Shown here: piece by piece, positions 41,520-56,732 of the stretch | How positions within the stretch are numbered: the stretch's first letter is position 1 | Layout: each line of letters starts with the position of its first letter | Translations under genes and position numbers: made by a program | Notes under the pieces: generated by a model | Told to the model about the DNA's origin: nothing | What the model saw: only the letters and a program-made list of their open reading frames with translations | Database searches by the model: none | Assembly (NCBI RefSeq): GCF_009725755.1 | Contig: NZ_WNIJ01000001.1 | Location: 372,001 to 436,000, forward strand | Direction of reading: 5' to 3' | DNA: 64,000 nucleotides | Origin: Bombella sp. ESL0385 | GTDB taxonomy: Bacteria > Pseudomonadota > Alphaproteobacteria > Acetobacterales > Acetobacteraceae

Positions 41520-41541
41520 TTTATCCTCTTGCTATAAAAAA

Positions 41542-41560: not shown

Positions 41561-41586
41561 CTGTATCGTCTGGCAGGGTGGTGTGT

Positions 41587-42074: not shown

Positions 42075-42086
42075 GGGGGTTCCTTG

Positions 42087-42509
42087 TTATGCTGTTGGTT
42101 CGCTAGGGGCTGTGGGGAGGGTTTTGCTGGTGGTGTCGGTGCCGTTCACAATAGCCATTAAGGCTTTTATGTAGGCGACCCAGTTATCAGGCGTAGGCTC
42201 ACCAATGATGCCGTAATTGTTATAAACAATCTGGCGTGCGGCTTGCAGAGCGGAGGTCGCTTGGGCTTTGAGCGGCGGCGGCGGCGGCACATACGGAACA
42301 ATCTTGCCATCTTGCACAGCCTGCCCGCACGGTTGCCGCGCTTCCCATTGCGCTGGCGTGAGAGGGAGTAGCTCTGAGGCGGGTGGGAACCCGTCTAAAT
42401 TGCTGTAAAATCCCATGTCAAACCACCCCGTAACAGGGGTCGGCTGGGTGGCCGAGTGGTCGTAACTGGCGTAATAACGCGCCGGATAAAGATTCTGATA
42501 ATTGCTCAT
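42087..42509 (-). CDS. Tail fibre assembly protein, first cassette
   Basis: About 140 residues from ATG 42509, which overlaps the fibre stop as ATGA. N-terminal beta part with YDHSATQPTPVTGWFDMG, a PPPPP hinge (VPYVPPPPPLKAQA) and the C-terminal helical unit ARQIVYNNYGIIGEPTPDN / VAYIKALMAIVNGTDTTS shared with the second cassette chaperone at 38759. Probably folds the fibre encoded just upstream. Confidence 0.75.
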   Translation of the reverse strand: MSNYQNLYPARYYASYDHSATQPTPVTGWFDMGFYSNLDGFPPASELLPLTPAQWEARQPCGQAVQDGKIVPYVPPPPPLKAQATSALQAARQIVYNNYGIIGEPTPDNWVAYIKALMAIVNGTDTTSKTLPTAPSEPTA

Positions 42510-43372
42510 TGCATAACTCCTATTGCGATAACCTGTAACGTCCACTGAGCACCGGAGGTATTAACCTCCCCGCCTTTGGCGTAGGCGGGTTGAAAGGAAA
42601 ATCCAGTATTATTGATATGCGGCGTGGCGGTGTTGAGATAAACGCCTATCGGAGCGAAACGGGAGACGTAATTCCCACCCGTTTCGCGGGTAATTGCGAT
42701 TGAAATTACAGGGATAGTGCCCGGTGTGAATGAAGCCGGGAACGAAACCCACGCCTCGTTACCGTAGCCTACGCCGGTTTGTCCTGTAGCCACAAACGCC
42801 TGAATCACCACACGGCCCGTTAAGTTCGGTCCAATCACCTCTGGCAACACGCCACCTCCGGCGCGGTTAATCGGCCCGGTGATAGTGCCGCCAGAGAGGG
42901 GCAGCAACCCCGCCTCTGCCGCCTGTGCCCGCTGCGTCTCCTGTTGAAGGGCGGCGGCTGTGGCGTAATTTCCTAGCGGGTCTAGCCAGCCATTCATGCT
43001 CTGGCTGGGGTCGTTGGTGTTATTGTCTGCCGTGCAGATGAGAAAACGCCCTGCGATGGTAGGGTGTGCGATGGTTGCACCTACAGGATAGCCGTTAATA
43101 GTGGCGGCATAATCGGCAGAGAAAGGGTGTAACATCCCTAGTTCTGCTGTGCGGGCCGCGCGTGAGAGCATATTGAGGATGCCATTCATGTCCTCGCCAT
43201 AAGGCGGCACGCCACCGGCGGCAATGGGGGTCATGGTCGCTTTGGGGAAGCCCAGAGCCATGCTCGCTCGGCCAATAGTGGTTGCTGATTGCGGAATGGT
43301 CGCAATGGTGGAGCTATCGGCCTGCTCTGCCCACGGGGTGGCGAAGAGGGGCCGGGTATCGGTCTGTTTCAT
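42506..43372 (-). CDS. Tail fibre protein, first cassette
   Basis: 288 residues. The N-terminal 100 residues (PLFATPWAEQADSSTIATIP, GGVPPYGEDMNGILNMLSRA) are the phage-attachment part common in tail fibres that follow DUF2612 proteins. A helix with QQETQRAQAAEAGLLPLSGG leads to a beta-rich distal half with no known receptor-binding fold. Overlaps DUF2612 and the chaperone by 4 bp each. Confidence 0.78.
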   Translation of the reverse strand: MKQTDTRPLFATPWAEQADSSTIATIPQSATTIGRASMALGFPKATMTPIAAGGVPPYGEDMNGILNMLSRAARTAELGMLHPFSADYAATINGYPVGATIAHPTIAGRFLICTADNNTNDPSQSMNGWLDPLGNYATAAALQQETQRAQAAEAGLLPLSGGTITGPINRAGGGVLPEVIGPNLTGRVVIQAFVATGQTGVGYGNEAWVSFPASFTPGTIPVISIAITRETGGNYVSRFAPIGVYLNTATPHINNTGFSFQPAYAKGGEVNTSGAQWTLQVIAIGVMQ

Positions 43373-44058
43373 GGAATGTAAACTCGCTGATAAAGGATGT
43401 GGACACCTGCGGGGCGGGGGAGGGCGCCGCTTTGCTGGATAAGGGTGACATCAAGGGGAGAGAGGTCCCAGTTGTGGCAAATCGTCATCGTACCATTGGC
43501 AGACCCTAAGGAGCTGTCGCCGAAAAAGATGCCGTTTTCGAAGGTTTGAGGGCCTTTGGTAGGGCCGTGCGCCTCTGTAAAGCCGAGATAGTCATCGGCG
43601 GGAGTACCCTCGGAGAGGTAAATGACCTTACCATTCCCGCCAAAGAGGCGCATGAGGATGGCATTACTTTGCGCGATGGAGCCGTTGGAGATGTTAGCCG
43701 CCGCCTTGGCGAAGATAAGCCGCCGGAAGGCCTCATCAGTGAGGGCATAATTCTCGGTGATGCTCTTGCCGGTATAAAAGATGCCATCTTCAAAAGGGCG
43801 TGCTGAATTGGTGCCGTCATCAGCCTCATCAAAGCCGATGAATTGCGGTTGACTGACCTTCTGGACGCGCTGGGCTCCAACAATGCGGCCCCATACATCC
43901 AGCCCCCATCCTGTGGCGGTAAGGGGGTTCCAGACGCGTTGTTGGAAGGTCTCAATGAGGCTCTGTGGGTCTATGGCCGCATTGAAGTAACCAATAATGC
44001 CGGTGAGGGCGGGGCTGTTGGCATATTGCGCTAAGATGGTCTCGCGTATGTCGATCAT
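43369..44058 (-). CDS. DUF2612 baseplate/tail protein
   Basis: 229 residues. ILAQYANSPALTGIIGYFNAA at the start, LDVWGRIVGAQRVQ and FRRLIFAKAAANISNGSIAQ are DUF2612 features (gpI-like wedge protein linking gpJ to fibres). Overlaps gpJ by 4 bp. Intact. Confidence 0.87.
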   Translation of the reverse strand: MIDIRETILAQYANSPALTGIIGYFNAAIDPQSLIETFQQRVWNPLTATGWGLDVWGRIVGAQRVQKVSQPQFIGFDEADDGTNSARPFEDGIFYTGKSITENYALTDEAFRRLIFAKAAANISNGSIAQSNAILMRLFGGNGKVIYLSEGTPADDYLGFTEAHGPTKGPQTFENGIFFGDSSLGSANGTMTICHNWDLSPLDVTLIQQSGALPRPAGVHILYQRVYIP

Positions 44059-45296
44059 GTCACCACCTGTACGCTGATTGTATCGGCTGTGACGGTGGGG
44101 AGCTGGTTAATCGGTAGGGTGAGCCTGTTCTGGCCCGCATTGGCGTCCGTGCCGATAGAGAGCGTTAGCACCTCTGCCCAGTCACCTAACCCATCCACAA
44201 CCGCTGAGAGGCGCGAGGCGTAGAGCGTCTTGCCGATGCGGATGCGTGTTGTCCCCGTTGTGAGATAGCTCATGATGGCTTGCTGAATAAGCTGTGCTGC
44301 GTTGTTCGGCACCGTGTCAGACGCGGCAATCTCCATAGTTACATAGACAGCCACCGGGGTGGGGCGGTCATAATGGAAGGAGTAAGACGGCTGGTTCCCC
44401 GCATAAACCGGGTTGGTATCCTGAACGGTGGCGATATGCGTGCCAACAGTTGCAATGCCGGGGGGCTTTTTATTGAGGATGGCCCGTCCGATATCTGTCG
44501 GATTGCCGCCCTCAACAAGGATATATTGCGCCCCTGCTGGGATGGTCACACCCTGTTGCGTCATGTCCGTTTGGGAGGGGTTATCCGTCACAAAGGCATC
44601 TGTTACGCCCGGGAGTGCAAGCAATGCGCCCATGAGAGAGGCGTTCTGGCCGATGCTGTTGGCCGCCACACTCGCTTGACGCCGCGCCTCGAAGTCCGTG
44701 CGGTTTTCGGCATCGGCTCCCGTAGCACCGGGGGCGGCGTTAGAGAGGGCTGCAATCCCCAGCCCTGCTTGATAGAGCGTTAAGCTATTGGCGGGGCATG
44801 TAATGGCCCCTGCTGTTTGGCATGAAAGCTCTAAATTAGCAGTGTTGGTGTTGGGGAGGGTAATATCCTGCGGGGCGGCATAGAGGTTGCCATCGCTACC
44901 CTGTGCGACGATTGTCCCAGCTTTGATGACCTGTCCGGGAGCGTTCACCGTGGCTTGCACGGTAACAGTGGTCGCGGTGGCGGGGCGGCGTTCCATAAAG
45001 TAAATGCGCCCGATAGCATCTTGCATCCGCCCGGAGGCTGAGGCGGGGTCCACGCCATTAAAGACGGCTAGCATGACCGATAGAAAATCGCCAAGAATAG
45101 CGGTTTCTGAAATGGCAATTTGCCCTTGAGGGGTGGAGAGGGCTGTATTAGCCCCGCCACCGAGGGCGGTGTTCATGTCCGCTAGCACGCCGGTGAGGAT
45201 GTCTTGCTCAGAAGGAGCGGTGAAGCCTGCATCGGTGAGGGTGGGAGCAGGGACGTTCGTTATGAAGTCAGAATTGGGCATAATCCGTGCTTCCAT
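44055..45296 (-). CDS. Baseplate J-like protein
   Basis: 413 residues. Baseplate wedge protein of the gpJ/gp47 family: DMNTALGGGANTALSTPQGQ, the Ala/Gly-rich core GTIVAQGSDGNLYAAPQDI, EARRQASVAANSIGQNASL and the C-terminal part with LYASRLSAVVDGLGDWAEV. The frame overlaps the gp25 gene; ATG 45281 inside it gives MPNSDFITN and may be the true start. Confidence 0.9.
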   Translation of the reverse strand: MEARIMPNSDFITNVPAPTLTDAGFTAPSEQDILTGVLADMNTALGGGANTALSTPQGQIAISETAILGDFLSVMLAVFNGVDPASASGRMQDAIGRIYFMERRPATATTVTVQATVNAPGQVIKAGTIVAQGSDGNLYAAPQDITLPNTNTANLELSCQTAGAITCPANSLTLYQAGLGIAALSNAAPGATGADAENRTDFEARRQASVAANSIGQNASLMGALLALPGVTDAFVTDNPSQTDMTQQGVTIPAGAQYILVEGGNPTDIGRAILNKKPPGIATVGTHIATVQDTNPVYAGNQPSYSFHYDRPTPVAVYVTMEIAASDTVPNNAAQLIQQAIMSYLTTGTTRIRIGKTLYASRLSAVVDGLGDWAEVLTLSIGTDANAGQNRLTLPINQLPTVTADTISVQVVT

Positions 45297-45618
45297 CAGT
45301 GAAGGTTACGAGGATAACGCCGCGTAATTGGCGTTCTTTTGTGGGATTGGCGAGGTGGCAGGTCGCAGCGGCAACGCCGGGGACGGAGAGCGCGGCATCC
45401 TCGACCTCGGAGGCGTAGAAGGAGATATCCACTTCTGAATTGAGGATGTCTGTATCGTAGGGGATGCCTTGCCCGGTGTCGTACAGCACCTCCCCCAGCC
45501 ATGTGCGGGCGGCAGAGCAGACATCTTGTAAAATGGCAGTTTTATCAGACAGCACAACGAGATTGCCGGTGCTATCAAGCGATAAGTCCCAATCAGAGGT
45601 AAGGGAGAGGGTTTTCAT
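45268..45618 (-). CDS. gp25-like baseplate wedge protein
   Basis: 116 residues: DWDLSLDSTGNLVVLSDKTAI, AARTWLGEVLYDTGQGIPY and the C-terminal strand RGVILVTFTDGS. This is the short GPW/gp25-like form common in simple myoviruses. First gene after the reversed island of plus-strand genes; upstream of it on its own strand lies the spike gene 1.7 kb away. Confidence 0.83.
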   Translation of the reverse strand: MKTLSLTSDWDLSLDSTGNLVVLSDKTAILQDVCSAARTWLGEVLYDTGQGIPYDTDILNSEVDISFYASEVEDAALSVPGVAAATCHLANPTKERQLRGVILVTFTDGSTDYAQF

Positions 45619-45664
45619 GCGGCGTCCTGTGAGGTAGCAGGTGAGGAAAGGTGAAGGAGGGCTT

Positions 45665-46021
45665 ATGATGCGTTTATTGGTGGTCGTGATGGCGGGGTTG
45701 GCGTTGTTTGGCGTGGCGCGAGCAGAGGAGCGTTTTGTCCGTGGGAGTGGTGGAACCTTTATGGTGGACCCTCAGCGGGCTTATGAGTTTCTACATGCTG
45801 CGTATTCGGAAAAAAGGATTGCTGATAACGCGTATGATGTTCTCATCAATAAAAGGCGTGGGCCTTGCTATGATGCTGTTATCCATATGTTTACCTACTA
45901 TGATGATGGTGGGGGGAATGTTACAAAATATTGCTACAAACCAGACTTAGAGAGTGATAACGCTGTTACTGGAGAGCATCCGGCTTATGCTCCTGCCTTG
46001 CCGGCGGTGCCTCCTCAATAA
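45665..46021 (+). CDS. Exported one-module cysteine-pair protein (unrecognised family), 118 aa
   Basis: Signal peptide MAGLALFGVARA; mature ~98 residues. One helical module ends with AYDVLINKRRGPCYDAV, matching the module ends of the proteins at 46034, 48062 and 50056; Cys68 is followed by a second Cys at 90 (KYCYKP), then a Pro-rich tail. ATG 45665 follows AAGGAGG. It runs opposite to the tail operon and starts the plus-strand island. No family recognised. Confidence 0.7.
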   Translation: MMRLLVVVMAGLALFGVARAEERFVRGSGGTFMVDPQRAYEFLHAAYSEKRIADNAYDVLINKRRGPCYDAVIHMFTYYDDGGGNVTKYCYKPDLESDNAVTGEHPAYAPALPAVPPQ

Positions 46022-46033
46022 GGAACTTTGTGT

Positions 46034-46417
46034 ATGACTTATCGTGCGTTTATGTGTGTTGCGGCTCTTATGATGTTTGGAGAGGCGCACGCGGATATGT
46101 TGAGCCATCAGCCTGAGCCTACAGAGTCGTTGTCTCAGGCACTGCATGATAATGCTGTTGCTGCTCATCATCGTGGGCATAGTGAGCAGGGCTTGCAGTT
46201 TGATGAGCAAAATCTGCGCCGTTTGGGGTTGTCGGAAAGGACGGCAAAGGATGGCCTATGGGCTGTGGTTCATCGTCCGCGTTCGCAATGTGCGCAATAT
46301 GTTCGTCAGCTTGCAGCGGATGCGAAAGGGGCCTCTGAGGCGTTTGTCCAAAGTGACCAACGTGTGGTGGTTTATCTAGAGAACTCCGGTATTTGTGAGC
46401 GGGAAAATCTACGGTAA
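46034..46417 (+). CDS. Exported one-module cysteine-pair protein (unrecognised family), 127 aa
   Basis: Signal peptide ending GEAHA near residue 20. The module LRRLGLSERTAKDGLWAV then RSQCAQYVRQL closely follows module 1 of the three-module proteins (RMGLSASLARQALWGA then SMCAQHVSLL). Mature cysteines at 86 and 121; the second, in YLENSGICEREN, corresponds to YDIEQVHICSK of the larger proteins. Thus this gene equals one repeat of them. 12 bp after the previous stop, AAGGA upstream; cotranscribed. Confidence 0.72.
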   Translation: MTYRAFMCVAALMMFGEAHADMLSHQPEPTESLSQALHDNAVAAHHRGHSEQGLQFDEQNLRRLGLSERTAKDGLWAVVHRPRSQCAQYVRQLAADAKGASEAFVQSDQRVVVYLENSGICERENLR

Positions 46418-46551
46418 GTTTTTCCTTTTCGTGGGAAGGGTTGGGCTTACTGCAAAGCAGTCTTGCAGGATTATGGTAGGTTGCGGCTTGATCTCCTTTT
46501 GGGAAGGGGCCAGCTGAGGGGCACCTTGATATACAGTAAGGAGATAGGAAT

Positions 46552-46707
46552 ATGGCTGATAAGTCAGATAGTAAGAATGCACCGCTCAAACCTACCCATG
46601 AAGTGATTAAGGAATTGCATCCTGAGGAGCGGCCAGCTGCGCGGGAGCGGCATTATGAGGTGATTGATGAGGTCTCTAGCGATGAAGCTGAGGATGTGAC
46701 GCAGTAA
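46552..46707 (+). CDS. Small charged protein, 51 aa
   Basis: ATG 46552 is preceded by AAGGAG at 8 nt. The product begins MADKSDSKNAPLKPTHEV and ends SSDEAEDVTQ: hydrophilic, acidic at the C-terminus, with no export signal, probably partly disordered. It lies between two exported-protein genes of the plus-strand island, 14 bp before the next start. Not recognised. Confidence 0.55.
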   Translation: MADKSDSKNAPLKPTHEVIKELHPEERPAARERHYEVIDEVSSDEAEDVTQ

Positions 46708-46721
46708 AGAGGAGGGCGGAG

Positions 46722-47312
46722 ATGGTACGAGGGGCCTTAAAGCTAAAACGCTTAGCTGTGAGAATGGGGATGCTAGGGGTAGGGTGTTGCATAGCAGGGG
46801 GGATCGCCCATGCGCAGGCCCCTCTTGAGGTGGGGCAAGATGGGCATGTAACGACCAATGGCATAGCGGCTATTGGTGTGTCTGCGCAGGAGGGGCAGCG
46901 TCTTGCTCAGGTGGGGAAGTGGCAGATGTTGGAGTTGGAACATACTCTGACGGCTTTGCTGGCTGAGGATGATGTAATGTTGTCCTTTTCTCCACGCCGT
47001 GGCGGAGATGTGTTTTTGATGTTCGTGCTGAAAGGTCAAGAGGTTAAGGACCCGGCTTTATCTGTACGTTTTTCGAACGGTCTGGAGGTAAAGAGCTTCC
47101 ATTATACCGGCATTATTAACCGAGGCACGCAATGGGGCTGTTATGTTAGTGAGGCAGAAGGGAAGGCCCTGTTCGCGGCATTGGCGCAAAGTCATGCTGT
47201 GACGATGGTGTGGAGTGGTGGGCAAAAGCAGGTTGAGTTTGCTCAAGGAGCTGAGTTTGTGCAGAATATGCGCGAGACTGCACAGCATGGGCATATGCCT
47301 TTCCCTCAATGA
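46722..47312 (+). CDS. Exported hypothetical protein, 196 aa
   Basis: Basic N-region then a signal peptide (MGMLGVGCCIAGGIAHAQA). The mature ~164 residues are beta-rich: WQMLELEHTLTALL, VMLSFSPRRGGDVFLMFVL, GLEVKSFHYTGIINRG, then WGCYVSEAEGKALFAALAQ and VTMVWSGGQKQVEFA. The last part faintly recalls exported IalB/DUF1176-type proteins, but I would not assign it. Only one mature Cys, so it is not a member of the cysteine-pair family. GAGGAGGGCGGAG upstream; its stop is 3 bp from the convergent spike gene. Confidence 0.65.
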   Translation: MVRGALKLKRLAVRMGMLGVGCCIAGGIAHAQAPLEVGQDGHVTTNGIAAIGVSAQEGQRLAQVGKWQMLELEHTLTALLAEDDVMLSFSPRRGGDVFLMFVLKGQEVKDPALSVRFSNGLEVKSFHYTGIINRGTQWGCYVSEAEGKALFAALAQSHAVTMVWSGGQKQVEFAQGAEFVQNMRETAQHGHMPFPQ

Positions 47313-47315
47313 TAA

Positions 47316-47981
47316 TTATCGGGGGGGACCGGTATCGCCGGAGCCGGGTTGTACCCCGTTATGGGTGTGTTGTGTAAGGGATATGCTGCCGGCTTTTACG
47401 TCACCATTTGTTACGATATCGCAATTTGCTGATAATTTTGCAGCATTGATAGTCACCTCGCCTTGGGCCTCAATAGAAACTGTCCCCGGTGTTACGATGC
47501 GCCAGCCTTGCTCTGTGGCCTGAATGAATTGATTTGGCCCGTTATTGAGAAAGCCACCCACATAAACGCAATCCTGTAGAGCAAATTGCCGGAATGAGGC
47601 AGGTGGGGATGGCTGACGGGTTGTTACGGCATGGGTGTGGTCGCGCCCGGATATGATGATGAAGCCAATATCGCCCGGTTTGGGGTCGATGATGAGGGCC
47701 GATGTGCCACCTTGGATGCGTAGGTAGGGCACATTATGGATGATATCATGCGCTAAAGGGCGTGATAGGGCGTCTTGTTGTTGGACCATGGGGCGGACGG
47801 TGACTTTGCCGGTGATAGAGGCTGGTTCTGCCGAGACATCCACGACTTGAACCAACATAGAAGGTCCAATTTGGCTAATGTGGCTGGCAATAAGGCTATC
47901 TAGCGCGCCTTTAATGTTATTTTTCCCCGTCGTAGGGCGAAGATAAGGGGTGTTGGTGGGGAGAGGCATAGTAGGCTCCAT
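47316..47981 (-). CDS. Gp138-family membrane-puncturing spike
   Basis: 221 residues. Trimeric tip of the contractile tail: the N-terminal OB-fold domain (VQVVDVSAEPASITGKVTVRP, IIDPKPGDIGFIIISGRDH) and a C-terminal beta-helix (TPGTVSIEAQGEVTINAAKL) ending in a metal-binding apex, HTHNGVQPGSGDTGPP. Normally follows the hub directly; here 3.1 kb of duplicated DNA separates it from the complete hub gene. ATG 47981 or 47969. Confidence 0.9.
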   Translation of the reverse strand: MEPTMPLPTNTPYLRPTTGKNNIKGALDSLIASHISQIGPSMLVQVVDVSAEPASITGKVTVRPMVQQQDALSRPLAHDIIHNVPYLRIQGGTSALIIDPKPGDIGFIIISGRDHTHAVTTRQPSPPASFRQFALQDCVYVGGFLNNGPNQFIQATEQGWRIVTPGTVSIEAQGEVTINAAKLSANCDIVTNGDVKAGSISLTQHTHNGVQPGSGDTGPPR

Positions 47982-48061
47982 ATTCTGGCGATGTGTTAAG
48001 GTGACAATTTGGTTTATTTGTTGATAGGGTGGTTTTGACTTTGTGATTATTGGGGGTAGTG

Positions 48062-49108
48062 ATGCGGGGCATTGTTGCGGGGATTTTGAGTTTTGTGGCG
48101 TTTGTTTTGATGCCGGGTTTGGGTGTTTGTGCTGATGGGATACCGCCTATAGAGGAGGGGTTGAAGATGGTTGCGGCGCAGCAGCAATATGCGTTGCAGC
48201 GGATGGGCTTGAGTGCGTCGTTAGCGCGGCAGGCTTTGTGGGGGGCGAAGTATAAGCCTGAGTCTATGTGCGCGCAGCATGTGAGTTTGCTGTTGAGCGG
48301 GTATGATGCGTTGCATCCTGAGTTCCCTGATGATGGGCCTCCGGATAAGGATAGGCAGGAGCGTATTCGCTTAGCGAATTCTGGGTCATGGCGATTTGTT
48401 TACGATATTGAGCAGGTACATATTTGTAGCAAGGCTTTTTTGGATAAGACGCCTGCGAAGCCTGTAGTTCGTAATCATGCAGGGATGGTTGCAAGGGACT
48501 TTCTAACCGATCGCCAAGGGACGATTAAGGCAATGATTGACGCTGGTGTAGAAAAAGGTGTTGCGGAGAGTGCAGCTGTTCTTTTAACGACTCAAAAAGG
48601 AAGGTTTGAAGCCTGTGCTGTGACAGTAGACCTTTTATTGCACGCTCATCAACCGTTGATGGGGCTGGATACGGATATTGCCCGGGAGTTGAATGCTCGG
48701 AGTTTTGAAACAGCGGAAACAGATTGTGACATTGGGCGGATGTATCAAGACCCGAATGCAGAAGACCCTTATGCGCCATCGATTGAGCGGTTATTGAAGG
48801 CTTTTCGGGAGGACCGGAAGGGGACGATTAAGAGGTTGAAGAAAGTGGGCGTCCGATGGGATCATGCTGAGGATGCGGCAGATTTAGTTCTTTCCCAGAA
48901 GGGGCGTTATTGGCGTTGCGCGGTTATTGTAGGGGGGTTGTTGGATAATATGGGGTATGAATGGGGAGATATTACCCATCATGTAGATGCGATAAATAAG
49001 GGGTATTATACCATTGGGGGCTATCCTAATGGTGGTGGTGGTAGTGGTGTTGGTGATGGGGTTTGTGATGTGGATAATATGAATCATGACCCGCGGGAGG
49101 GATGGTAG
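48062..49108 (+). CDS. Exported three-module cysteine-pair protein, copy 1 (unrecognised family), 348 aa
   Basis: Signal peptide (GILSFVAFVLMPGLGVCA) cut before DGIPPIEEG. Three related helical modules at about residues 42-80, 153-193 and 252-295, each ending K-x-(G/P)-R/E...C-A-x-x-V-x-x-LL (SMCAQHVSLLL, EACAVTVDLLL, WRCAVIVGGLL). Module cysteines 70, 185 and 286 are each followed 37-52 residues later by another (122, 222, 335), six in all, suggesting three disulfides in the periplasm or outside. C-terminus is Gly-rich. ATG 48062 starts the signal peptide; GGGGGT is a weak ribosome site. Reversed relative to the tail genes. Its stop is 9 bp from the truncated hub. Confidence 0.75.
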   Translation: MRGIVAGILSFVAFVLMPGLGVCADGIPPIEEGLKMVAAQQQYALQRMGLSASLARQALWGAKYKPESMCAQHVSLLLSGYDALHPEFPDDGPPDKDRQERIRLANSGSWRFVYDIEQVHICSKAFLDKTPAKPVVRNHAGMVARDFLTDRQGTIKAMIDAGVEKGVAESAAVLLTTQKGRFEACAVTVDLLLHAHQPLMGLDTDIARELNARSFETAETDCDIGRMYQDPNAEDPYAPSIERLLKAFREDRKGTIKRLKKVGVRWDHAEDAADLVLSQKGRYWRCAVIVGGLLDNMGYEWGDITHHVDAINKGYYTIGGYPNGGGGSGVGDGVCDVDNMNHDPREGW

Positions 49109-49117
49109 AGCAAGGGG

Positions 49118-49951
49118 TTAGGTTGCTCCGTTGTGAGGTGGTTTTTGGCCGAGATTGGTGCGGATGCAATCGATGGTTGTGTGCCATTTGCCTTCCGCTA
49201 TTTCTGTTGAGACTTCATGTTGGATGGCAATGGGGAGCCATAGGCCATCCCAAGGGGCTTTGCTGATAAGCTGGTGACTTTGGTTGGTGAGGCTATTTGG
49301 CTTATTTTCTGGGGGGAGCCAGTTTTGAGGGATGTACTTGCTATCTAGGGTGAATGGTTGCCAGAAGGCGATGTCTGGGCGGAGGAGTGTTGTGATGGTT
49401 GTTCCGGCCTCGTTATATTTGGGATAGCCAACCATACCATTTTGGGCAGAGATGATGGGTATTGATTTTGCTTGCCCATTTGGAGGGGTGCCAGTGTAGG
49501 AGCCGCCCCAGATTTCAACCACCCCTAGATGGGCTGTTGTTTGGGAGATTTGCTGCTTGTAGCTGTTGGGGAGGTTGTTAGTCTCGTCTTGCGTAATGGG
49601 GGTGTAAGGTCGGATATTATATTTGATATGTGTTGCGTTTACGACCCCCTTTATTTGGTCTAGCGCAGTCCCAGAGCGGTAATGGTTGGTGAGGGTTTGG
49701 TGATGATCCCAACCGCCATAATTGAGGAGTTGGAGTTTTGCTGCGTAGCAGATGTCTTGCAGGATGGAGAGGGCGGGGTAAGGGCCTTTATAGCCTTTTG
49801 CGGGGATGAGAATGCCAGCGGGGATTGTGTTTGTCATGGCATGGATTTGGAAGGGTGTGTCTGGGTCGTTATAATCCGTATAGGCGTCGTTAATTTGCCC
49901 GATAAAGAGGGTTGTGAGGGGGGCGTTATTATCATCGCTCACAGAGAGCAT
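49118..49951 (-). pseudogene. Truncated duplicate of the baseplate hub gene
   Basis: Matches the complete hub at 51088-52212 but lacks the first ~96 codons; homology stops at 49985 in the duplication junction. An internal ATG at 49951 (MLSVSDDNNAPL) would allow a 277-residue product, and the frame upstream is open into the neighbouring plus-strand gene, though without a good start. The copy is not otherwise broken, yet differs from the full hub near its C-terminus (KYIPQNWLPPENKPNS against KYAPQNWLPSPNQPNS). It could be dead, or a donor or variant C-terminal part. Confidence 0.85.
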
Positions 49952-49987
49952 GATGGTGGTGCGCCCGGGGAGAACGTGGTTGAGGAA

Positions 49988-51958
49988 TGTTAAGGTGACA
50001 ATATGGTTTATTTGTTGATAGGGTGGCTTTGGCTTTGTGATTATTGGGGGTTGTGATGCGGGGATTTGTTGCGGGGATTTTGAGTTTTGTGGCGTTTGTT
50101 TTTGTGCCGGGTTTGGGTGTTTGTGCTGATGGGATACCGCCTATAGAGGAGGGGTTGAAGATGGTTGCGGCGCAGCAGCAATATGCGTTGCAGCGGATGG
50201 GCTTGAGTGCGTCGTTAGCGCGGCAGGCTTTGTGGGGGGCGAAGTATAAGCCTGAGTCTATGTGCGCGCAGCATGTGAGTTTGCTGTTGAGCGGGTATGA
50301 TGCGTTGCATCCTGAGTTCCCTGATGATGGGCCGCCGGATAAGGATAGGCAGGAGCGTATTCGCTTAGCGAATTCTGGGTCATGGCGATTTGTTTACGAT
50401 ATTGAGCAGGTACATATTTGTAGCAAGGCTTTTTTGGATAAGACGCCTGCGAAGCCTGTAGTTCGTAATCATGCAGGGATGGTTGCAAGGGACTTTCTAA
50501 CCGATCGCCAAGGGACGATTAAGGCAATGATTGACGCTGGTGTAGAAAAAGGTGTTGCGGAGAGTGCAGCTGTTCTTTTAACGACTCAAAAAGGAAGGTT
50601 TGAAGCCTGTGCTGTGACAGTAGACCTTTTATTGCACGCTCATCAACCGTTGATGGGGCTGGATACGGATATTGCCCGGGAGTTGAATGCTCGGAGTTTT
50701 GAAACAGCGGAAACAGATTGTGACATTGGGCGGATGTATCAAGACCCGAATGCGGAATATCCTTATGCGCCATCGATTGAGCGGTTGCAGAAGGCTTTTC
50801 GGGAGGATCGGAAAGGGACGATTGAGCGGTTGGTACAGGCGGGTGTTAGGCGTGTATGGGCGGAGAATGCAGCGGATTTAGTTCTTTCCCAGAAGGGGCG
50901 GTATGGCCCCTGTGCTATTATCATGGGGGGATTGTTGGATAATATGGGGTATGAGTGGGGGGATATTACCCATCATGTTAAAGCTATTAATGATGGGATT
51001 TATTATGGGAAAGGGTTGGGGACTGGAGTTTGTGATGCGGAGAATGCAGAAGAAGCCCCTGAGTCCGGTGCATTGCGCTGGTAGGTATTAGGATAGTGCT
51101 TTGTTATGAGGTGGTTTTTGGCCGAGATTGGTGCGGATGCACTCTATGGTTGTGTGCCATTTGCCCTCCGCTATTTCTGTTGAGACTTCATGTTGGATGG
51201 CAATGGGTAGCCATAGGCCATCCCAAGGGGCTTTGCTGATAAGCTGGTGACTTTGGTTGGTGAGGCTGTTCGGTTGGTTGGGGGAAGGAAGCCAATTTTG
51301 AGGGGCGTATTTGCTCTCTAATATAAGAGGTTGCCAGAAGGCGATGTCTGGGCGGAGTAGTGTTGTGATGGTTGTTCCGGCCTCGTTATATTTGGGGTAG
51401 CCAACCATACCATTTTGGGCAGAGATGATGGGTATTGATTTTTCTTGCCCATTTGGAGGGGTGCCAGTGTAGGAGCCGCCCCAGATTTCAACCACCCCTA
51501 GATGGGCTGTTGTTTGGGAGATTTGCTGCTTGTAGCTGTTGGGGAGGTTGTTGGCCTCGTCTTGCGTAATGGGGGTGTAAGGTCGGATATTATATTTGAT
51601 ATGTGTTGCGTTTACGACCCCCTTTATTTGGTCTAGCGCAGTCCCAGAGCGGTAATGGTTGGTGAGGGTTTGGTGATGATCCCAACCGCCATAATTGAGA
51701 AGTTGGAGTTTGGCTGCGTAGCAGATGTCTTGCAGGATGGAGAGGGCGGGGTAAGGGCCTTTATAGCCTTTTGCGGGGATGAGAATGCCAGCGGGGATTG
51801 TGTTTGTCATGGCATGGATTTGGAAGGGTGTGTCTGGGTCGTTATAATCCGTATAGGCGTCGTTAATCTGCCCGATAAAGAGTGTTGTGAGGGGGGCGTT
51901 ATTATCATCGCTCACAGAGAGCATGATGGTGGTGCGGCCGGGAAGAACGTGGTTGAGG
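49988..51958. repeat. Tandem duplication, copy 2
   Basis: Second unit of the 1,994-bp-period repeat. Starts TGTTAAGGTGACAAT at 49988 and ends CGTGGTTGAGG at 51958, inside the complete hub gene. Only 2 bp separate the two copies. Copy 2 keeps the original link to the hub 5' end, while copy 1 keeps the original link to the spike. Confidence 0.93.
50056..51084 (+). CDS. Exported three-module cysteine-pair protein, copy 2 (unrecognised family), 342 aa
   Basis: Same protein as the one at 48062 for the first ~235 residues (three substitutions in the signal peptide region), including modules 1 and 2 and their cysteines. The third module and tail differ: GTIERLVQAGVRRVWAENAA and GRYGPCAIIMGGLL replace GTIKRLKKVGVRWDHAEDAA and GRYWRCAVIVGGLL, and the tail is acidic (CDAENAEEAPESGALRW) instead of Gly-rich. 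The cysteine pattern is kept, which suggests both copies are functional. Its stop is 3 bp from the hub stop. Confidence 0.75.
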   Translation: MRGFVAGILSFVAFVFVPGLGVCADGIPPIEEGLKMVAAQQQYALQRMGLSASLARQALWGAKYKPESMCAQHVSLLLSGYDALHPEFPDDGPPDKDRQERIRLANSGSWRFVYDIEQVHICSKAFLDKTPAKPVVRNHAGMVARDFLTDRQGTIKAMIDAGVEKGVAESAAVLLTTQKGRFEACAVTVDLLLHAHQPLMGLDTDIARELNARSFETAETDCDIGRMYQDPNAEYPYAPSIERLQKAFREDRKGTIERLVQAGVRRVWAENAADLVLSQKGRYGPCAIIMGGLLDNMGYEWGDITHHVKAINDGIYYGKGLGTGVCDAENAEEAPESGALRW

Positions 51959-52212
51959 TCGTCCACCATAGGGTAATCGGGCACGATAGAGAAATCTTCG
52001 CGTGTTTTCTTGAAAAGCCCTTTAATGGTGATGTCAGCCTCGGAACCGAGTGCGACGCCTGCATGTTTGATGAGGGCATGGATGGCGTGGTCTTGCCCAA
52101 TGGTGATATTGGAAAAAGACCCATCCGCTTGTGGTGTGTAAAAGGTGATGATGATTTGTTTATGGGTAAAGCTGTTGGCTTTGGGGGGCGTAGCAGAGGC
52201 GGTGTAGGTCAT
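51088..52212 (-). CDS. Baseplate hub protein (complete copy)
   Basis: 374 residues, beta-rich. Position between the baseplate plug and (ancestrally) the Gp138 spike, and features such as GSEADITIKGLFKKTREDF, SVSDDNNAPLTTLFIGQIN and LQDICYAAKLQLLNYGGWDH, fit a gp27/gp44-type hub that holds the spike and the tail tube. Its start overlaps the plug gene by 4 bp. The last ~75% is duplicated at 49118. Confidence 0.8.
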   Translation of the reverse strand: MTYTASATPPKANSFTHKQIIITFYTPQADGSFSNITIGQDHAIHALIKHAGVALGSEADITIKGLFKKTREDFSIVPDYPMVDDLNHVLPGRTTIMLSVSDDNNAPLTTLFIGQINDAYTDYNDPDTPFQIHAMTNTIPAGILIPAKGYKGPYPALSILQDICYAAKLQLLNYGGWDHHQTLTNHYRSGTALDQIKGVVNATHIKYNIRPYTPITQDEANNLPNSYKQQISQTTAHLGVVEIWGGSYTGTPPNGQEKSIPIISAQNGMVGYPKYNEAGTTITTLLRPDIAFWQPLILESKYAPQNWLPSPNQPNSLTNQSHQLISKAPWDGLWLPIAIQHEVSTEIAEGKWHTTIECIRTNLGQKPPHNKALS

Positions 52213-52508
52213 GATGAGTTGTCCTCATAATAAAGGAGGAAGCGGGAGCCGAGGGCTGTGAAGTCAGGGTCTGATGTGCCGGCGTTGTCCCCAAAATAGA
52301 GGGTACCAGGCAGGGGGCTGAGGGGGGAGCGAAGGAGGTCTGTCCCATTTTGGCAGAGGGTGCCAAGGAGGAGGGGAGTGTTGTTTGCGGTGATATCTAT
52401 ATACAAGCCGGAGGCAAGTTGGCGGAGCCAGAATTGGCATTGTAACCCGGCGATGGGGCAGGTGAGGCTTTGGGCGGGAATTGGGGAGAGGGGGATGGTG
52501 TAGAGCAT
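52209..52508 (-). CDS. Baseplate plug protein
   Basis: 99 residues. LTCPIAGLQCQFWLRQLASG, then LYIDITANNTPLLLGTLCQNG and LPGTLYFGDNAG, ending LGSRFLLYYEDN: the short beta-barrel plug (Pam3 gp18-like) that sits between Dit-like protein and hub in simple myovirus baseplates. 3 bp after the Dit-like gene and overlapping the hub by 4 bp. Confidence 0.75.
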   Translation of the reverse strand: MLYTIPLSPIPAQSLTCPIAGLQCQFWLRQLASGLYIDITANNTPLLLGTLCQNGTDLLRSPLSPLPGTLYFGDNAGTSDPDFTALGSRFLLYYEDNSS

Positions 52509-52511
52509 GAA

Positions 52512-53207
52512 TTAACCCTTCCCGGAATTGAGGTTGGTAGTGCCTGTATTTTGTGTAGGTGCCCCTTGGGGGTATCGTGTTGCCGAGGAGGGGAAGGTGT
52601 TGCTTTGTCGAACCTCTTGGAGGGTGATGTCTGCCATGATGAGGTCTGCTGTGTTACTGTCTGCTGAGCGGGTAATTTTATAGTTGACGATGTTGGCGTC
52701 AGGATAGTTACGTTCCGGCGTAATAACGTAATAAAGGTTAGTGTCTTTGACTAACTCGGTTAGTTTATCGGCAAATTTGCTTTTTACTGTATCTGGTCCG
52801 ACGCCGAGGGCCCCACGTAAAAAGCCTGGGAGGAGGTTTTCTGCTAGATTGCCGGTTTCTGACCCATCGCAGATCATCCGAATGGTGGCAGTGTAGGGGG
52901 CGGCAACCTTATTATAGCTGGTGAAAGAGGTGTTCTCCTGTGGGGCAGTGCAGATAGAGGATTTTTCTTCTATTTGTAGGGAAACGACATGGGCGGCGGT
53001 TAGTACGGGTTCTGGGCCTTTTTTGAAAAGGGTGGTGACGTCATTGCCTAGCAGTTTGGTGGCGGTGGTTTGCCAGCCTTTTTTTGCTTCGGCTTTGGGG
53101 TTGGTGAAAATGCCCCATTGGCGGGCGGCGCGTTGGATGGCCCAGTTCTCCAACGCGTCCCCCCCAAAGCTGGAGGCCGTGGCCCGGAGGGATGTAAGGG
53201 CGGACAT
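52512..53207 (-). CDS. Dit-like phage tail protein
   Basis: 231 residues. ALENWAIQRAARQWGIFTNP at the start, TAAHVVSLQIEEKSSICTAP and TSFTSYNKVAAPYTATIRM are the pattern of the Dit-like N-terminal domain of myovirus baseplates (a Ser-Tyr-Asn-Lys-Val strand followed by a membrane-distal barrel). The C-terminus is Asn/Gly/Thr-rich. Located between tape measure and plug, as expected. Confidence 0.7.
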   Translation of the reverse strand: MSALTSLRATASSFGGDALENWAIQRAARQWGIFTNPKAEAKKGWQTTATKLLGNDVTTLFKKGPEPVLTAAHVVSLQIEEKSSICTAPQENTSFTSYNKVAAPYTATIRMICDGSETGNLAENLLPGFLRGALGVGPDTVKSKFADKLTELVKDTNLYYVITPERNYPDANIVNYKITRSADSNTADLIMADITLQEVRQSNTFPSSATRYPQGAPTQNTGTTNLNSGKG

Positions 53208-53239
53208 GGGGGTTCCTCTCTTTTCTGGCCCGCTGTGGT

Positions 53240-54478
53240 CTAGCTGATATGGGCGAGTGTGTAGCGGGTGATGGTTTTGGCAATGCTCGCTTCTACCGCG
53301 CGGGCGATTTCCGCTGGGTGTTGTGAGTTTGCCTTCACGGTGATGTTAATAGTGGGGCTGTGGGTTGTGTTGTTGTGGGTGGTGGTGTGCCGTGGTTGGG
53401 CGGTGTCCATCGCTTGCACAATTTGGGTGATGGCGTGTGTGTTGCTCAATTGTGGCGGGGTTGTGTTGCTGTGCTGTTGGGGAAGGTGGTGTTGGGCGAG
53501 TGCAGCACTTGCTTGGGTTAACGCATGGGTGAGGCGTACCCAGTGTGTTGAGGTTTCGTCTCGTTCTGATAGGTGGGGTGAGGCTGGTGGGTTCGGGTTA
53601 AATGATGGTGTGGGGTGGTAGGGTGGGGAAGCTGGTGTAAGGGGGGTGTTTGTCGCTTGTGAGGCGGCGGCGGTGCGTGTTGTAAGGTCGGGTTGTGGGG
53701 CATTGGGTGTGTGTGGTTTGGCCGCTGGTGGCGTGTAAAATGGGGGTTCTGCCGTGCGGGAGGGGGGTGAGTGTGGTGGTGTGTGTGTGGCTAGGATGGT
53801 GCGGGTGGTCAGCAAAGCGGAGAGGTCTTGCACCATAGCCAGAGGGTTGTTGGCTGGGGCGTCAGCGTTGGGGTGTTGTTTGCGCTGGTGGAGCCGGGCG
53901 AGGGCTTGCTCGGCATTATGGAGGGTGGGCTCGACCTCTTGGAGGGCTTGGCGTGTGAGCTGATTGGCGCGTGAGAGGAGGTTTGCCCATTCCTGCACAG
54001 CGCGGTTAGGGGATGGCGAGGTGTGTGTGAGGGGAGAGGGGATTGGGGATGTTGGGGTCTGGGAGGTGGCGGTGTGGGTGTGGTCTTGCGGGGTGTGTGG
54101 TGTGAGGGGTGTGTCTTCCAGCGAGGAGGTGGGGTGTTGAGAGAGGGGGGCTAGAGCTTGTTGGAGGGTGTTGAGCTGTGGCGGGGTGGCTGTTAGCTGT
54201 TGGCCAAGGGTGCTGAGAGCCTGAGTGGCGTGGGTGATGTCTTGGCCAAATGTGGAGAGGGAGCGGCCCCCGGTAAAGAGGGCGAGGGCCCCCATGGCTT
54301 CTTGCCGGAAGGTGCGGAAGGCATCGGCCCCTTGTTGGCCTGTTTGGGCAAGGGTTTGAGCGGTGTTGTTTGCGTGTTGCTCTAGTGTCGTGAGGTTTTG
54401 GTGGGCTTGTGCGGCCCCTTGGGCGAGGCCGGAGCTATCTAGCCCGAGTTGGATGATGAGGGTATCAAGAATTGCCAT
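53240..54478 (-). CDS. Tail tape-measure protein (short)
   Basis: 412 residues, only a third to a half of usual tape-measure length, implying a short tail. The N-terminus AILDTLIIQLGLDSSGLAQGA is the family start; then a helical region and a ~250-residue stretch rich in Thr, Pro, His, Ser and Gln. The C-terminus SPTINITVKANSQHPAEIARA is the conserved tape-measure end. The coding strand is extremely C+A rich here. The start lies inside the preceding small frame. Confidence 0.82.
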   Translation of the reverse strand: MAILDTLIIQLGLDSSGLAQGAAQAHQNLTTLEQHANNTAQTLAQTGQQGADAFRTFRQEAMGALALFTGGRSLSTFGQDITHATQALSTLGQQLTATPPQLNTLQQALAPLSQHPTSSLEDTPLTPHTPQDHTHTATSQTPTSPIPSPLTHTSPSPNRAVQEWANLLSRANQLTRQALQEVEPTLHNAEQALARLHQRKQHPNADAPANNPLAMVQDLSALLTTRTILATHTPPHSPPSRTAEPPFYTPPAAKPHTPNAPQPDLTTRTAAASQATNTPLTPASPPYHPTPSFNPNPPASPHLSERDETSTHWVRLTHALTQASAALAQHHLPQQHSNTTPPQLSNTHAITQIVQAMDTAQPRHTTTHNNTTHSPTINITVKANSQHPAEIARAVEASIAKTITRYTLAHIS

Positions 54479-54587
54479 TTACGCGCTCCACTGCCGCGAC
54501 TTCCCAGAGGAGCCACATATCCTCGCTGTCATAAAGTGTTTTCAGCTCGTGTAATGTGGCTAAGCCTGCCCCGATGACAAAGGCCAT
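54465..54587 (-). CDS. Small frame between chaperone and tape measure (T-like)
   Basis: 40 residues, MAFVIGAGLATLHELKTLYD...VERVNGNS. It begins 15 bp after the chaperone stop, in its -1 frame, and ends inside the tape-measure start. In many phages this slot holds the second half of a frameshifted chaperone (G-T of lambda). The -1 frame is open back across the chaperone C-terminus, so a fused product is possible, although I see no classic slippery heptamer. Confidence 0.5.
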   Translation of the reverse strand: MAFVIGAGLATLHELKTLYDSEDMWLLWEVAAVERVNGNS

Positions 54588-54601
54588 TGGGGTTGAGAGG
54601 T

Positions 54602-55066
54602 TTACGCAGCGGGTGGGGCTGCGTCCTCCGGCTGTGTCTCCCTCAATATGGCGATGAGAGGGTAGATCTGGTAAATCGCGGCCTTGAAAAAATCCACATT
54701 AAGCCGGAAGGCCTCCGCCCGAAGAGCGGGTAATGTGTTGGGGTCTGAGATGTCGGCCTCGATGAGGGGGGCGGGGTCGATGGCCTGATTATGCGGGTCG
54801 CGGCGGATTTTGACGCAATCAAGCAGGCCGGAGAAGGCTTTGTCGCAGTCCTCGTCACTCATATGGCCGAATAGAGCCATACTTTGGCCGGAAAGACCGA
54901 CAATGCCGCTTTGTAGGGCCTCGCGCGGGGTGTTTGCGCCCGCGCGGGCGAGGGCACGAACAACATGCCGTGCCCAATGGTCCGCCGTAAAGGCGGACAT
55001 GCGGGAGATGACAAAGCATTTGCCTGCATCTGACCCGTCTTTTGGGGTCCATTCAATGGATTTCAC
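54602..55066 (-). CDS. Tail assembly chaperone
   Basis: 154 residues from GTG 55066, which has AAGGA at 8 nt; the longer frame to 55108 runs into the tube gene. Begins KSIEWTPKDGSDAGKCFVIS and contains SAFTADHWARHVVRAL and LNVDFFKAAIYQIYPLIAIL. It lies between tube and tape measure, the place of the gpE/G-type chaperone that coats the tape measure. Confidence 0.75.
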   Translation of the reverse strand: MKSIEWTPKDGSDAGKCFVISRMSAFTADHWARHVVRALARAGANTPREALQSGIVGLSGQSMALFGHMSDEDCDKAFSGLLDCVKIRRDPHNQAIDPAPLIEADISDPNTLPALRAEAFRLNVDFFKAAIYQIYPLIAILRETQPEDAAPPAA

Positions 55067-55077
55067 GAAGGGGGTCC

Positions 55078-55521
55078 TTATAAGCCAGCGGGGAGGACAT
55101 TCTCCCATGTGATGGTCACGCTGCGGTCGCCTAAGGTTGTTTTGCCGGCGGGGACGGGGTCGTAATCCGTCAGGCAGCCATTGGTGAAGGTGTAACGCCG
55201 CCCTAACCCGTGTAGGAGGAGCTCGCCATTGAGTTCATATACCGTGCGGGCCTGACGTGAGGCCGTGGCGATGGCATCAAAAACCAGCAAGGAGTTGGAG
55301 CCTGCTGAGAAGGTGAGTACCATGGGATAAAGGGAAGGGATGTAGCCTTTATTCATCTTGCCATCGAGGGAGAGTGTTGTGGCGGCGAGTTTTACTTTCT
55401 GCCCACTGCTCCATGAATTTTCGGTGGCCCAGTTCTCCAATGTGATGGGGGTGTTGAACAGAGTTTTGACCGTGAGGGTGAATACGGCATCTGCTGCTGT
55501 AATGAGTGCGTTGCCTGACAT
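55078..55521 (-). CDS. Tail tube protein (DUF3277)
   Basis: 147 residues. TVKTLFNTPITLENWATENSW, LSLDGKMNKGYIPSLYPM and RYTFTNGCLTDYDPVPAG fit DUF3277, the tail tube of myoviruses that carry a DUF3383 sheath. It starts 2 bp after the sheath gene ends. Confidence 0.82.
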   Translation of the reverse strand: MSGNALITAADAVFTLTVKTLFNTPITLENWATENSWSSGQKVKLAATTLSLDGKMNKGYIPSLYPMVLTFSAGSNSLLVFDAIATASRQARTVYELNGELLLHGLGRRYTFTNGCLTDYDPVPAGKTTLGDRSVTITWENVLPAGL

Positions 55522-55523
55522 GA

Positions 55524-56693
55524 TTATTGGACCTCAATAGACGCAAGGTTGATGGATTGAACGGATTGGCCATCCGTGTACCAGAAGCGGCAGGGCGGGC
55601 TTTTGCGAGCCACGCGAATATCTGCCGGGGAGGTAGAGGCGTTAGGTTGGAAGTACCAGCCGCGTGTCTGCACTGTGTCGCTGATGGTTGTGCCTGCTGC
55701 GAGGTCGATTTGCTGTTTTTGCAGGGATGTAAGCTGGATGCCGGGGCGGATGGCCCCAAAGCGCAGGGCTTGGTTGATGGTATCCTGCACGCTCGCGGAG
55801 ATGAGCCCGTCCCCTGTGACGTTATAGGGGATTTGGCCCACATTAAGCAGGAGATTTACAAGGTCGGATTGGAAGGAGGCGTTAAGCCAAATCTGGTTGA
55901 TGTAGCTATCAGCCCAGAGGAACGCGCCAGAGACATGGCCATCCTCTAGCCATTGGAAGCGTCCTAGGCCGTTAGCGTAAGCCCCGTAGAAGTTATAGCC
56001 ATTAGCACGCAATGTGGAAGCGGTTACGGCATCTGTTACGGTAGGGGCAAGCAATCCGCTGCGGCGGAAGCATAGATTGGTGCGTCCAGATGTTGCGCTG
56101 AAATCCAAAGATGCCATCCAGCCTAGGCAGAAAGCACATGCTAAGGGGTCTTGGTAGAGCAGGGTTGTGCCGTCAATATTCTGGTTTTGTAACCATGTGC
56201 CGAAGCTGGTGCTATTCTGGCTGTTGAGGGCTTGTGCATCTGTATCAAAAGGGACGTACCAGTAGCGGTCTGCTTGGCTTGCGGTCCAGTTCGCGAAGGC
56301 CTGCTTCTGGGTTAATGTGGGTTCCCATGTGGTGGTAAAGCCAGCGAAGTTTTGCGTTTGGCTGGTGATGAGGTCCATCAAGTCGGCTGGGCTGGCTTGG
56401 TGGGCGGCATCAGCCATGTAGATGAGCAAGGTAGAGGGGCTTTGGGTGGCGTCCTCAAAGCCGCTGAAATAGACGGACGCCATGCGGGCTTCAAGGCTTG
56501 TGGCGGGGAAGTCTTTTGTGACGTCTTCCAAAGAGGTGTAGGTTTTGAGCTGCCCAGCGGTGAGGGTGGATGTGTCGCCCGGTGTGGTGATGAATAACCC
56601 GTTGATGAAGGGGACGCCGCTAGCGGCTCCAATCGTGCCGGGGTTGATGGTGACAATTTGGGAAAGGGGGATGGTGCTTGTAAGGGATGCCAT
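55524..56693 (-). CDS. Tail sheath protein (DUF3383)
   Basis: 389 residues. SLTSTIPLSQIVTINPGTIG, DVTKDFPATSLEARMASVYFSGF and TLLIYMADAAHQ are the sheath N-terminal pattern; the C-terminal third, with ADIRVARKSPPCRFWYTDGQ, carries the strands that link neighbouring subunits. Contractile sheath of the tail, so the phage is a myovirus. Confidence 0.87.
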   Translation of the reverse strand: MASLTSTIPLSQIVTINPGTIGAASGVPFINGLFITTPGDTSTLTAGQLKTYTSLEDVTKDFPATSLEARMASVYFSGFEDATQSPSTLLIYMADAAHQASPADLMDLITSQTQNFAGFTTTWEPTLTQKQAFANWTASQADRYWYVPFDTDAQALNSQNSTSFGTWLQNQNIDGTTLLYQDPLACAFCLGWMASLDFSATSGRTNLCFRRSGLLAPTVTDAVTASTLRANGYNFYGAYANGLGRFQWLEDGHVSGAFLWADSYINQIWLNASFQSDLVNLLLNVGQIPYNVTGDGLISASVQDTINQALRFGAIRPGIQLTSLQKQQIDLAAGTTISDTVQTRGWYFQPNASTSPADIRVARKSPPCRFWYTDGQSVQSINLASIEVQ

Positions 56694-56732
56694 GAGATGG
56701 GGTCCTTAATGTTAGGGGGGAGAGAGGAAGCG

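What the first reader, a model, noticed from the sequence alone, without database searches (positions are those of the whole stretch)
48760..49340. Divergence between the two copies is confined to where the two convergent genes end
The repeats match almost base for base except in 48760-49340 against 50755-51320, which holds the third module and tail of the exported protein and the C-terminal codons of the hub. The rest stays near identical, so simple drift does not explain it. Either recombination with another phage replaced this segment in one copy, or gene conversion homogenised the flanks while this part is under diversifying selection. Both copies keep the cysteines.
Basis: partly seen in the sequence, partly recalled or inferred. 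Interest (0 to 1): 0.6.

Follow-up and report, generated by a model that had tools for sequence, protein, structure and literature searches.

The report
Module-swapping exported genes in phage-like element
The two copies differ where they do because this bee-associated bacterium carries a family of exported proteins that swap whole modules between copies by recombination; the genes are arrayed in a phage-like element and at two other chromosomal sites, and what the proteins do is unknown.

Summary
The two 2-kb tandem units match closely except in two blocks: 48760-49138 (third module and tail of the exported protein) and 49295-49362 (inside the hub gene), separated by a near-identical island. 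Unit 1's hub is a truncated fragment. The cause is recombination, not local diversification. The genome holds six copies of the exported gene, in pairs at three loci; three related genomes hold more. Fourteen full copies share a near-invariant first module (mean 97.8% nucleotide identity) but carry diverged versions of module 2, module 3 and tail (dS about 0.7-1.0, against 0.09 in module 1) in mixed combinations. Copies 1 and 2 have identical module 2 (0/252); copy 1's module 3 is identical (0/213) to a chromosomal copy in another strain whose module 2 differs at 125/249 sites; copy 2's module 3 groups with that strain's phage-locus copy. Six of eight array junctions read are the same. The surrounding phage-like element has the same flanks in the six genomes compared (one flank seen for one), so it looks vertically inherited. 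No family or fold was found for the exported protein. I suggest, unproven, a periplasmic recognition or immunity protein against tail tips.

The parts
47994..49987 (.). tandem unit 1: exported gene (+) plus convergent truncated hub fragment (-)
49988..51960 (.). tandem unit 2: exported gene (+) plus 3' part of the complete hub gene (-)
48050..49108 (+). exported protein copy A1 (352 aa from the TTG; an ATG follows at codon 5): signal peptide read by eye, constant module 1, module 2, linker, module 3, tail
50044..51084 (+). exported protein copy A2 (346 aa), same module 2 as A1, different module 3 and tail
48760..49138 (.). divergent block 1 of unit 1 (linker, module 3, tail, last hub codons); counterpart 50754-51111
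   Evidence: 95 of 352 columns differ
49295..49362 (.). divergent block 2 (hub residues about 296-316); counterpart 51268-51335
   Evidence: 23 of 68 columns differ; synonymous proportion 0.589 here, 0.065 and 0.144 in the hub stretches on either side
49118..49951 (-). N-truncated hub fragment (277 codons, lacks residues 1-96), still an open frame
   Evidence: phrog_196 baseplate hub
49970..49990 (.). tandem junction (hub at about residue 86 joined to the exported gene's upstream region); the same join in six of eight array junctions read, the two in G010's triple array differ
51088..52212 (-). complete baseplate hub gene (374 aa)
   Evidence: phrog_196 E 9.9e-31; Pfam E217_GP41 above cut-off
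45641..46021 (+). ex1, small exported protein; resemblance to the module judged by eye
   Evidence: relatives in sister genomes
46028..46417 (+). ex2, one-module relative of the exported family
   Evidence: weak match E 4.8e-4; relatives
46722..47312 (+). ex3, exported protein beside the spike gene; no Pfam, PHROG or NCBIfam match, one weak PADLOC AbiEi match
47316..47981 (-). spike (Pfam GpV Apex motif)
38759..64000 (.). phage-like element, structural genes on the - strand; continues past the window with large and small terminase to about contig position 438800

Best explanation
Shown: the two units are a tandem duplication inside the tail region of a phage-like element, and their sequences carry the imprint of segmental recombination within a mosaic family of exported three-module proteins. 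The copies keep a near-identical first module and a conserved linker and carry one of several diverged, interchangeable versions of module 2, module 3 and tail. Units of exported gene plus hub 3' fragment also sit at two other chromosomal loci (B and C), and versions are found in combinations that cut across loci and strains. Inferred: ordinary homologous recombination (gene conversion or allelic replacement) makes the swaps, starting and ending in the constant stretches and the shared hub fragment. Inferred and weaker (about 0.3): the proteins act in the periplasm or at the cell surface as recognition or immunity proteins against phage or particle tail tips, and variation is kept because the targets vary.
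For: Six full copies in the own genome at three loci. Five in G010 (one incomplete), four in G006 (two incomplete), three in IMG/VR contigs of a further genome (one incomplete). Mean nucleotide identity over 14 full copies: module 1 0.978, module 2 0.641, linker 0.881, module 3 0.800, tail 0.727; dS 0.086, 1.03, 0.36, 0.74, 0.75. A1-A2: module 2 0/252, module 3 50/186. A1-AS1_5: module 3 0/213, module 2 125/249. Own B1 and sac_590b, at different loci in different strains, differ at 1/258 in module 2 and at no site in linker, module 3 and tail. Trees: module 2 joins A1, A2 and C1 (100/99); module 3 plus tail joins A2 with AS1_P1 (98/96) and A1 with AS1_5, sac_590c, C1 and sac_525 (96/99); A1+A2 rejected at p-AU 4e-17. 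PHI-type statistic 0.431 against a mean of 0.663 in 2000 permutations. Module-1 dS (residues 45-138) is alike within genomes (0.079-0.129), between genomes (0.101-0.125) and in valS (0.055-0.119). The same junction occurs at the element and at loci B and C. Five of five sister genomes examined lack the exported gene at locus C. No reverse transcriptase was found.
Against: No exchange has been watched, and donor and recipient cannot be told apart. A1's tail has 5/63 differences from C1 and 8/63 from AS1_5, and A2's module 3 has 8/186 from AS1_P1, so several events or unsampled donors are needed. The background is uneven: manC (dS 0.52) and the TolC-like gene (1.7-1.8 between own and the other two) are far more diverged than valS, so the depth of the variable modules is not unique to them. 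Function has no direct support: no Pfam, PHROG, NCBIfam or PADLOC family at a usable score for the exported protein, no PDB sequence relative, a poor model (mean pLDDT 57) and no fold match. By eye, exported-tail class and hub-block class are not tightly linked, which speaks against a strict matched pair.
Confidence: 0.87

Rival explanations
1. Flanks were homogenised by gene conversion between the two tandem copies, while module 3 and the hub block diverged in place under diversifying selection.
For: Flanks are near identical and dN is raised in the tail (0.55).
Against: dS is higher than dN in the divergent block (1.31 in module 3, 0.81 in the tail; synonymous proportion 0.59 in the hub block), and the block sequences recur at other loci and in other strains.
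Confidence: 0.05
2. A single import from an incoming phage replaced the segment in one copy, with no standing exchange within the family.
For: A2's module 3 and tail are closest to the phage-locus copy of another strain.
Against: A1's module 3 is identical to a chromosomal locus-C copy, and module 2 shows the same mixing in other copies; tblastn found no relative in 50,697 phage or 72,556 plasmid records.
Confidence: 0.06
3. A programmed system (diversity-generating retroelement or invertase shufflon) makes the variation.
For: Constant and variable parts alternate.
Against: No reverse transcriptase in the genome; no inverted repeats of 40 bp or more in 40000-60000 (shorter ones not searched); the copies of each array face the same way.
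Confidence: 0.02
4. Same recombination, other function: the proteins are secreted effectors or adhesins acting on the bee, on fungi or on rival bacteria, kept diverse by those targets.
For: Exported by sequence, cysteine-conserving, lineage-restricted and diverse.
Against: Genes of this kind sit opposite hub and spike genes in several genomes, which fits a tail-related role better; no Pfam or NCBIfam match to any effector family.
Confidence: 0.3

Closest known systems
PE/PPE multigene families of mycobacteria (PMC4770551 and PMC13061034, search listings with abstract starts only)
   Same: Works alike: conserved N-terminal part, variable C-terminal part, variation spread by recombination or gene conversion.
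   Different: No sequence relationship shown; different export route (recalled). Here the family lies in a phage-like tail locus and carries hub-gene fragments with it.
Silent-cassette antigenic variation systems such as vls and pilE (recalled, no call)
   Same: Segmental recombination among homologous copies with constant flanks.
   Different: The six copies in this genome are all open frames with a start and a signal region; no single expression site was identified.
Prophage extra genes and prophage-encoded antiviral proteins (PMC11364771, PMC10884400, search listing with abstract starts only)
   Same: Extra genes on the opposite strand in a phage structural cluster.
   Different: No PADLOC match for the exported protein; copies also sit outside the element; product looks exported; modular mosaicism.
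PBSX-like elements and gene transfer agents (PMC8987985, PMC3423380, search listing with abstract starts only)
   Same: Phage structural cluster with the same flanks across a genus, no integrase among 37 proteins of the element and its edge scanned.
   Different: Packaging of host DNA, killing and gene transfer not tested; diversified exported gene array beside hub and spike.

Membership tests
Recombining mosaic multigene family | Several paralogues sharing constant segments and differing in exchangeable segments | tested here: met
Recombining mosaic multigene family | Conflicting phylogenies between segments | tested here: met
Recombining mosaic multigene family | Exchange seen within a lineage over time | not testable with these tools
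   needs passaged or very closely related isolates
Diversity-generating retroelement | Reverse transcriptase in the genome | tested here: not met
   0 of 1 genomes with PF00078; control positive in 3 of 14 named genomes
Shufflon | Invertible segments bounded by inverted repeats with a site-specific recombinase | tested here: inconclusive
   no inverted repeats of 40 bp or more in 40000-60000; shorter sites and recombinases not searched
Ordinary prophage | Own integrase and replication genes | tested here: inconclusive
   none among 37 proteins of the element and its edge scanned with PHROGs; short ORFs not scanned
Ordinary prophage | Insertion site that varies between strains | tested here: not met
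   same flanking genes on both sides in own, G001, G002, G003, G009 and on the one side seen in G005
Gene transfer agent or PBSX-like element | Vertical inheritance at one locus | tested here: met
   with the limit for G005
Gene transfer agent or PBSX-like element | Packages host DNA | not testable with these tools
   needs sequencing of DNA in particles
Known anti-phage defence protein | Match to a PADLOC model | tested here: not met
   0 matches at E 0.1 for both full copies, ex1, ex2 and the G150 relative; ex3 has one weak AbiEi match, E 0.0065

The most novel reading that the evidence does not exclude
A genus-wide, vertically inherited contractile phage-like particle has a built-in, module-shuffling exported repertoire next to its hub and spike genes, which lets lineages recognise or resist the particles of their kin; the repertoire is copied to other chromosomal sites together with hub fragments, and DNA carried by the particle may itself feed the shuffling.
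Probability: 0.15. Interest if true: 0.85.

Novelty: new variant of a known kind. Interest (0 to 1): 0.6.

Why it matters
It describes an exported protein family, unmatched in the libraries searched, that is shuffled by recombination inside a bacterial phage-like element and at two other chromosomal sites. If the proteins guard against particle tail tips, Bombella would offer a tractable bee-symbiont system for recognition between kin bacteria mediated by domesticated phage parts. It also warns that assemblies of this genus can break at these repeats: several copies here run off contig ends.

Tried and rejected
Rejected: sequencing error (variants recur in independent assemblies); in-place positive selection (dS too high); retroelement. 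Led nowhere: Pfam, PHROGs, NCBIfam, PADLOC and PDB sequence searches for the exported protein and relatives (only weak matches below any cut-off); AlphaFold2 model from 17 rows, mean pLDDT 57, Foldseek against PDB and BFVD with no match at E 0.001; tblastn against phages and plasmids; viral contigs with the G150 relative (23 pattern matches, none confirmed) and with the hub (13 pattern matches, three loci, the same two IMG/VR genomes). A matched-pair idea (exported-tail type with hub-block type) was not supported by the alignment, judged by eye. The empty-site test at locus B was weak: manC was found in the five sister genomes fetched, but the upstream neighbour genes did not match there.

Rows dropped: the trees, PHI test and identity table used 14 full copies; AS1_P2p, AS1_1p, vir_1bp and sac_Pp, which run off contig ends, were left out of those, but those long enough were used in the module-1 comparison. 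IMG/VR locus L060 covers a contig of the same length and range as L054 and was not counted again. Searches covered 11 genomes, seven of the genus (own and G001-G006); the empty sites were read in G001-G005 only, the remaining sister genomes were not looked at.

Full report
Observation. The tandem units 47994-49987 and 49988-51960 align over 1967 columns with 144 mismatches. These lie mostly in two blocks: 48760-49138 (95/352) and 49295-49362 (23/68). The island between has 4/156 and the outer parts 9/766 and 13/625. A 580-column window holds 122 mismatches against a maximum of 69 in 10,000 permutations. The hub gene is complete only in unit 2 (374 aa); unit 1 holds a 277-codon fragment. The second block is at about hub residues 296-316. 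Between fragment and hub the proportion of changed synonymous sites is 0.589 in the stretch with this block, 0.065 on its N-terminal side and 0.144 on its C-terminal side. Six mature cysteines are invariant in 14 of 14 full family members.

The gene family. The own genome (unnamed, 1.9 Mb, five contigs) has six full copies of the exported gene in three tandem pairs: in the window, at contig positions 933759 and 935531 (locus B), and at 1030275 and 1032020 (locus C). In the own genome B and C lie among ordinary genes (manC, PAP2, Sel1-repeat, efflux protein, valS), with decayed hub 3' fragments attached. In G010, however, an integrase gene and a transposase gene lie about 2-3.5 and 1-1.6 kb upstream of the locus-B copy (L056), so a mobile element may have had a part there. 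Of 100 genomes searched with the protein, 10 had a match at E 0.001, all of one genus; near full-length relatives were in G000, G006 and G010, the rest were short matches of the kind given by one-module proteins. By contig coordinates G006 corresponds to Parasaccharibacter apium AS1 and G010 to Bombella saccharophila TMW 2.2558, so the genus is inferred to be Bombella. Two IMG/VR contigs of a further genome add three copies. Loci B and C have matching flanks in G000, G006 and G010. A profile search of 299 genomes of the family found matches in 10, in three genera.

Constant and variable segments. Over 14 full copies mean nucleotide identity is 0.978 in module 1 (residues 28-138), 0.641 in module 2, 0.881 in the linker, 0.800 in module 3 and 0.727 in the tail; dS is 0.086, 1.03, 0.36, 0.74 and 0.75. 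Module-1 dS (residues 45-138) within genomes (0.079-0.129) is like that between genomes (0.101-0.125) and near valS (0.055-0.119). But manC (0.52, own against G010) and the TolC-like gene (1.7 and 1.8 between own and the other two, 0.03 between those two) show that the background is uneven. So module 1 behaves as one pool across loci and strains, and the variable modules are far more diverged than module 1 and valS, though not more than every host gene.

Mosaic evidence. A1 and A2 are identical in module 2 (0/252) and differ in module 3 (50/186, plus 27 gap positions). A1 and AS1_5, a locus-C copy of another strain, are identical in module 3 (0/213) and differ at 125/249 sites in module 2. Own B1 and sac_590b, at different loci, differ at 1/258 in module 2 and at none in linker, module 3 and tail. 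Module 2 and module 3 trees conflict with strong support, and A1+A2 is rejected for module 3 plus tail (p-AU 4e-17). The PHI-type statistic is 0.431 against a permutation mean of 0.663. A2's module 3 and tail are closest to AS1_P1 but with 8/186 and 2/72 differences, and A1's tail matches none of the copies compared exactly; more donors or events are needed.

How the copies arose. The join between the hub fragment (about residue 86) and the next exported gene's upstream region is the same in front of own A2, B2 and C2, AS1_P2 and two IMG/VR copies; in G010's triple array at locus C the two joins are different and the spacers shorter, so six of eight agree. A spacer deletion is shared by own B1, own C1 and vir_1. 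This fits one tandem duplication in the tail locus followed by copying of units to B and C (inference). At B and C five of six first copies begin at or near the start codon with unrelated upstream DNA; AS1_5 keeps some more of the upstream region. In G001-G005 the glucokinase-like and TolC-like genes lie close together at locus C without the exported gene (5 of 5). In another genus (G150, L083) four tandem units of exported gene plus hub copy occur, three of the hub copies cut at the corresponding place (one of these with stops in the cut part), with a constant first module and variable second module in three of the four exported copies. In other Bombella genomes exported genes of this kind face extra spike copies or fragments. 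G184 and G110 carry a two-module relative near TolC and valS without hub or spike matches in the 19 kb fetched; a terminase-like ORF lies nearby in G110, judged by eye.

The element. PHROGs hits give tail fibre, endolysin, baseplate, hub, a tail protein at the tape-measure position, a structural protein at the tube position, sheath, tail chaperone, neck, capsid, protease, portal and both terminase subunits, and a repressor-like protein at the far end. None of 37 proteins scanned matched an integrase; short ORFs were not scanned. The same flanking genes lie on both sides in the own genome, G001, G002, G003 and G009, and on the one side seen in G005. Against those genomes the capsid protein is about 91% identical, the hub about 46-48% and the tape-measure-like protein about 33-34%. 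I read this as a vertically inherited, possibly domesticated element; this is inference.

Function. No family or fold was found. The export signal is read by eye from the sequence. The position opposite hub and spike genes, the conserved cysteines and the spread of versions fit a periplasmic recognition or immunity role (about 0.3); an effector or adhesin role is about as open. The lack of tight linkage between exported-tail and hub-block types (by eye) is against a strict matched pair.

Literature. Passages of PMC9147383, PMC12282179 and PMC10259446 were seen; they report prophages in Bombella genomes (PHASTER in the first two) and CRISPR spacers against prophages, and the passages seen do not mention this family. 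Of the search listings seen (15 of 15 papers, 15 of 342, 15 of 32, 6 of 6, 12 of 310, 12 of 14, 10 of 29) no title or abstract start describes it.

Noticed in passing
38759-64000 and on to about contig position 438800: Phage-like structural cluster with the same flanks in the Bombella genomes compared and no integrase among 37 proteins scanned; candidate gene transfer agent or PBSX-like element.
   Followed up: partly
L083 5659-12443: Another genus has four tandem units of exported gene plus hub copy; three hub copies lack the N-terminus at nearly the same residue as in Bombella.
   Followed up: partly
L086 6253-7981, L087, L088, L091: In other Bombella genomes exported one-module genes face extra spike copies or spike 3' fragments; L086 holds a second near-complete spike.
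   Followed up: partly
L081 9628-10377, L082 9173-9892: A two-module relative lies near TolC and valS in another genus, close to where locus C lies in Bombella.
   Followed up: no
L056 4485-5894 and 6367-6939: Integrase and transposase genes upstream of the locus-B copy in G010.
   Followed up: partly
L009 11939-13426 against L057 and L058: TolC-like gene has dS 1.7-1.8 between the own genome and two sister strains while neighbouring valS has about 0.1, a sign of replacement of that gene.
   Followed up: no
L009 6707-8143, L057 4991-6616: A Sel1-repeat gene lies beside locus C in two of the three strains, with different lengths.
   Followed up: no
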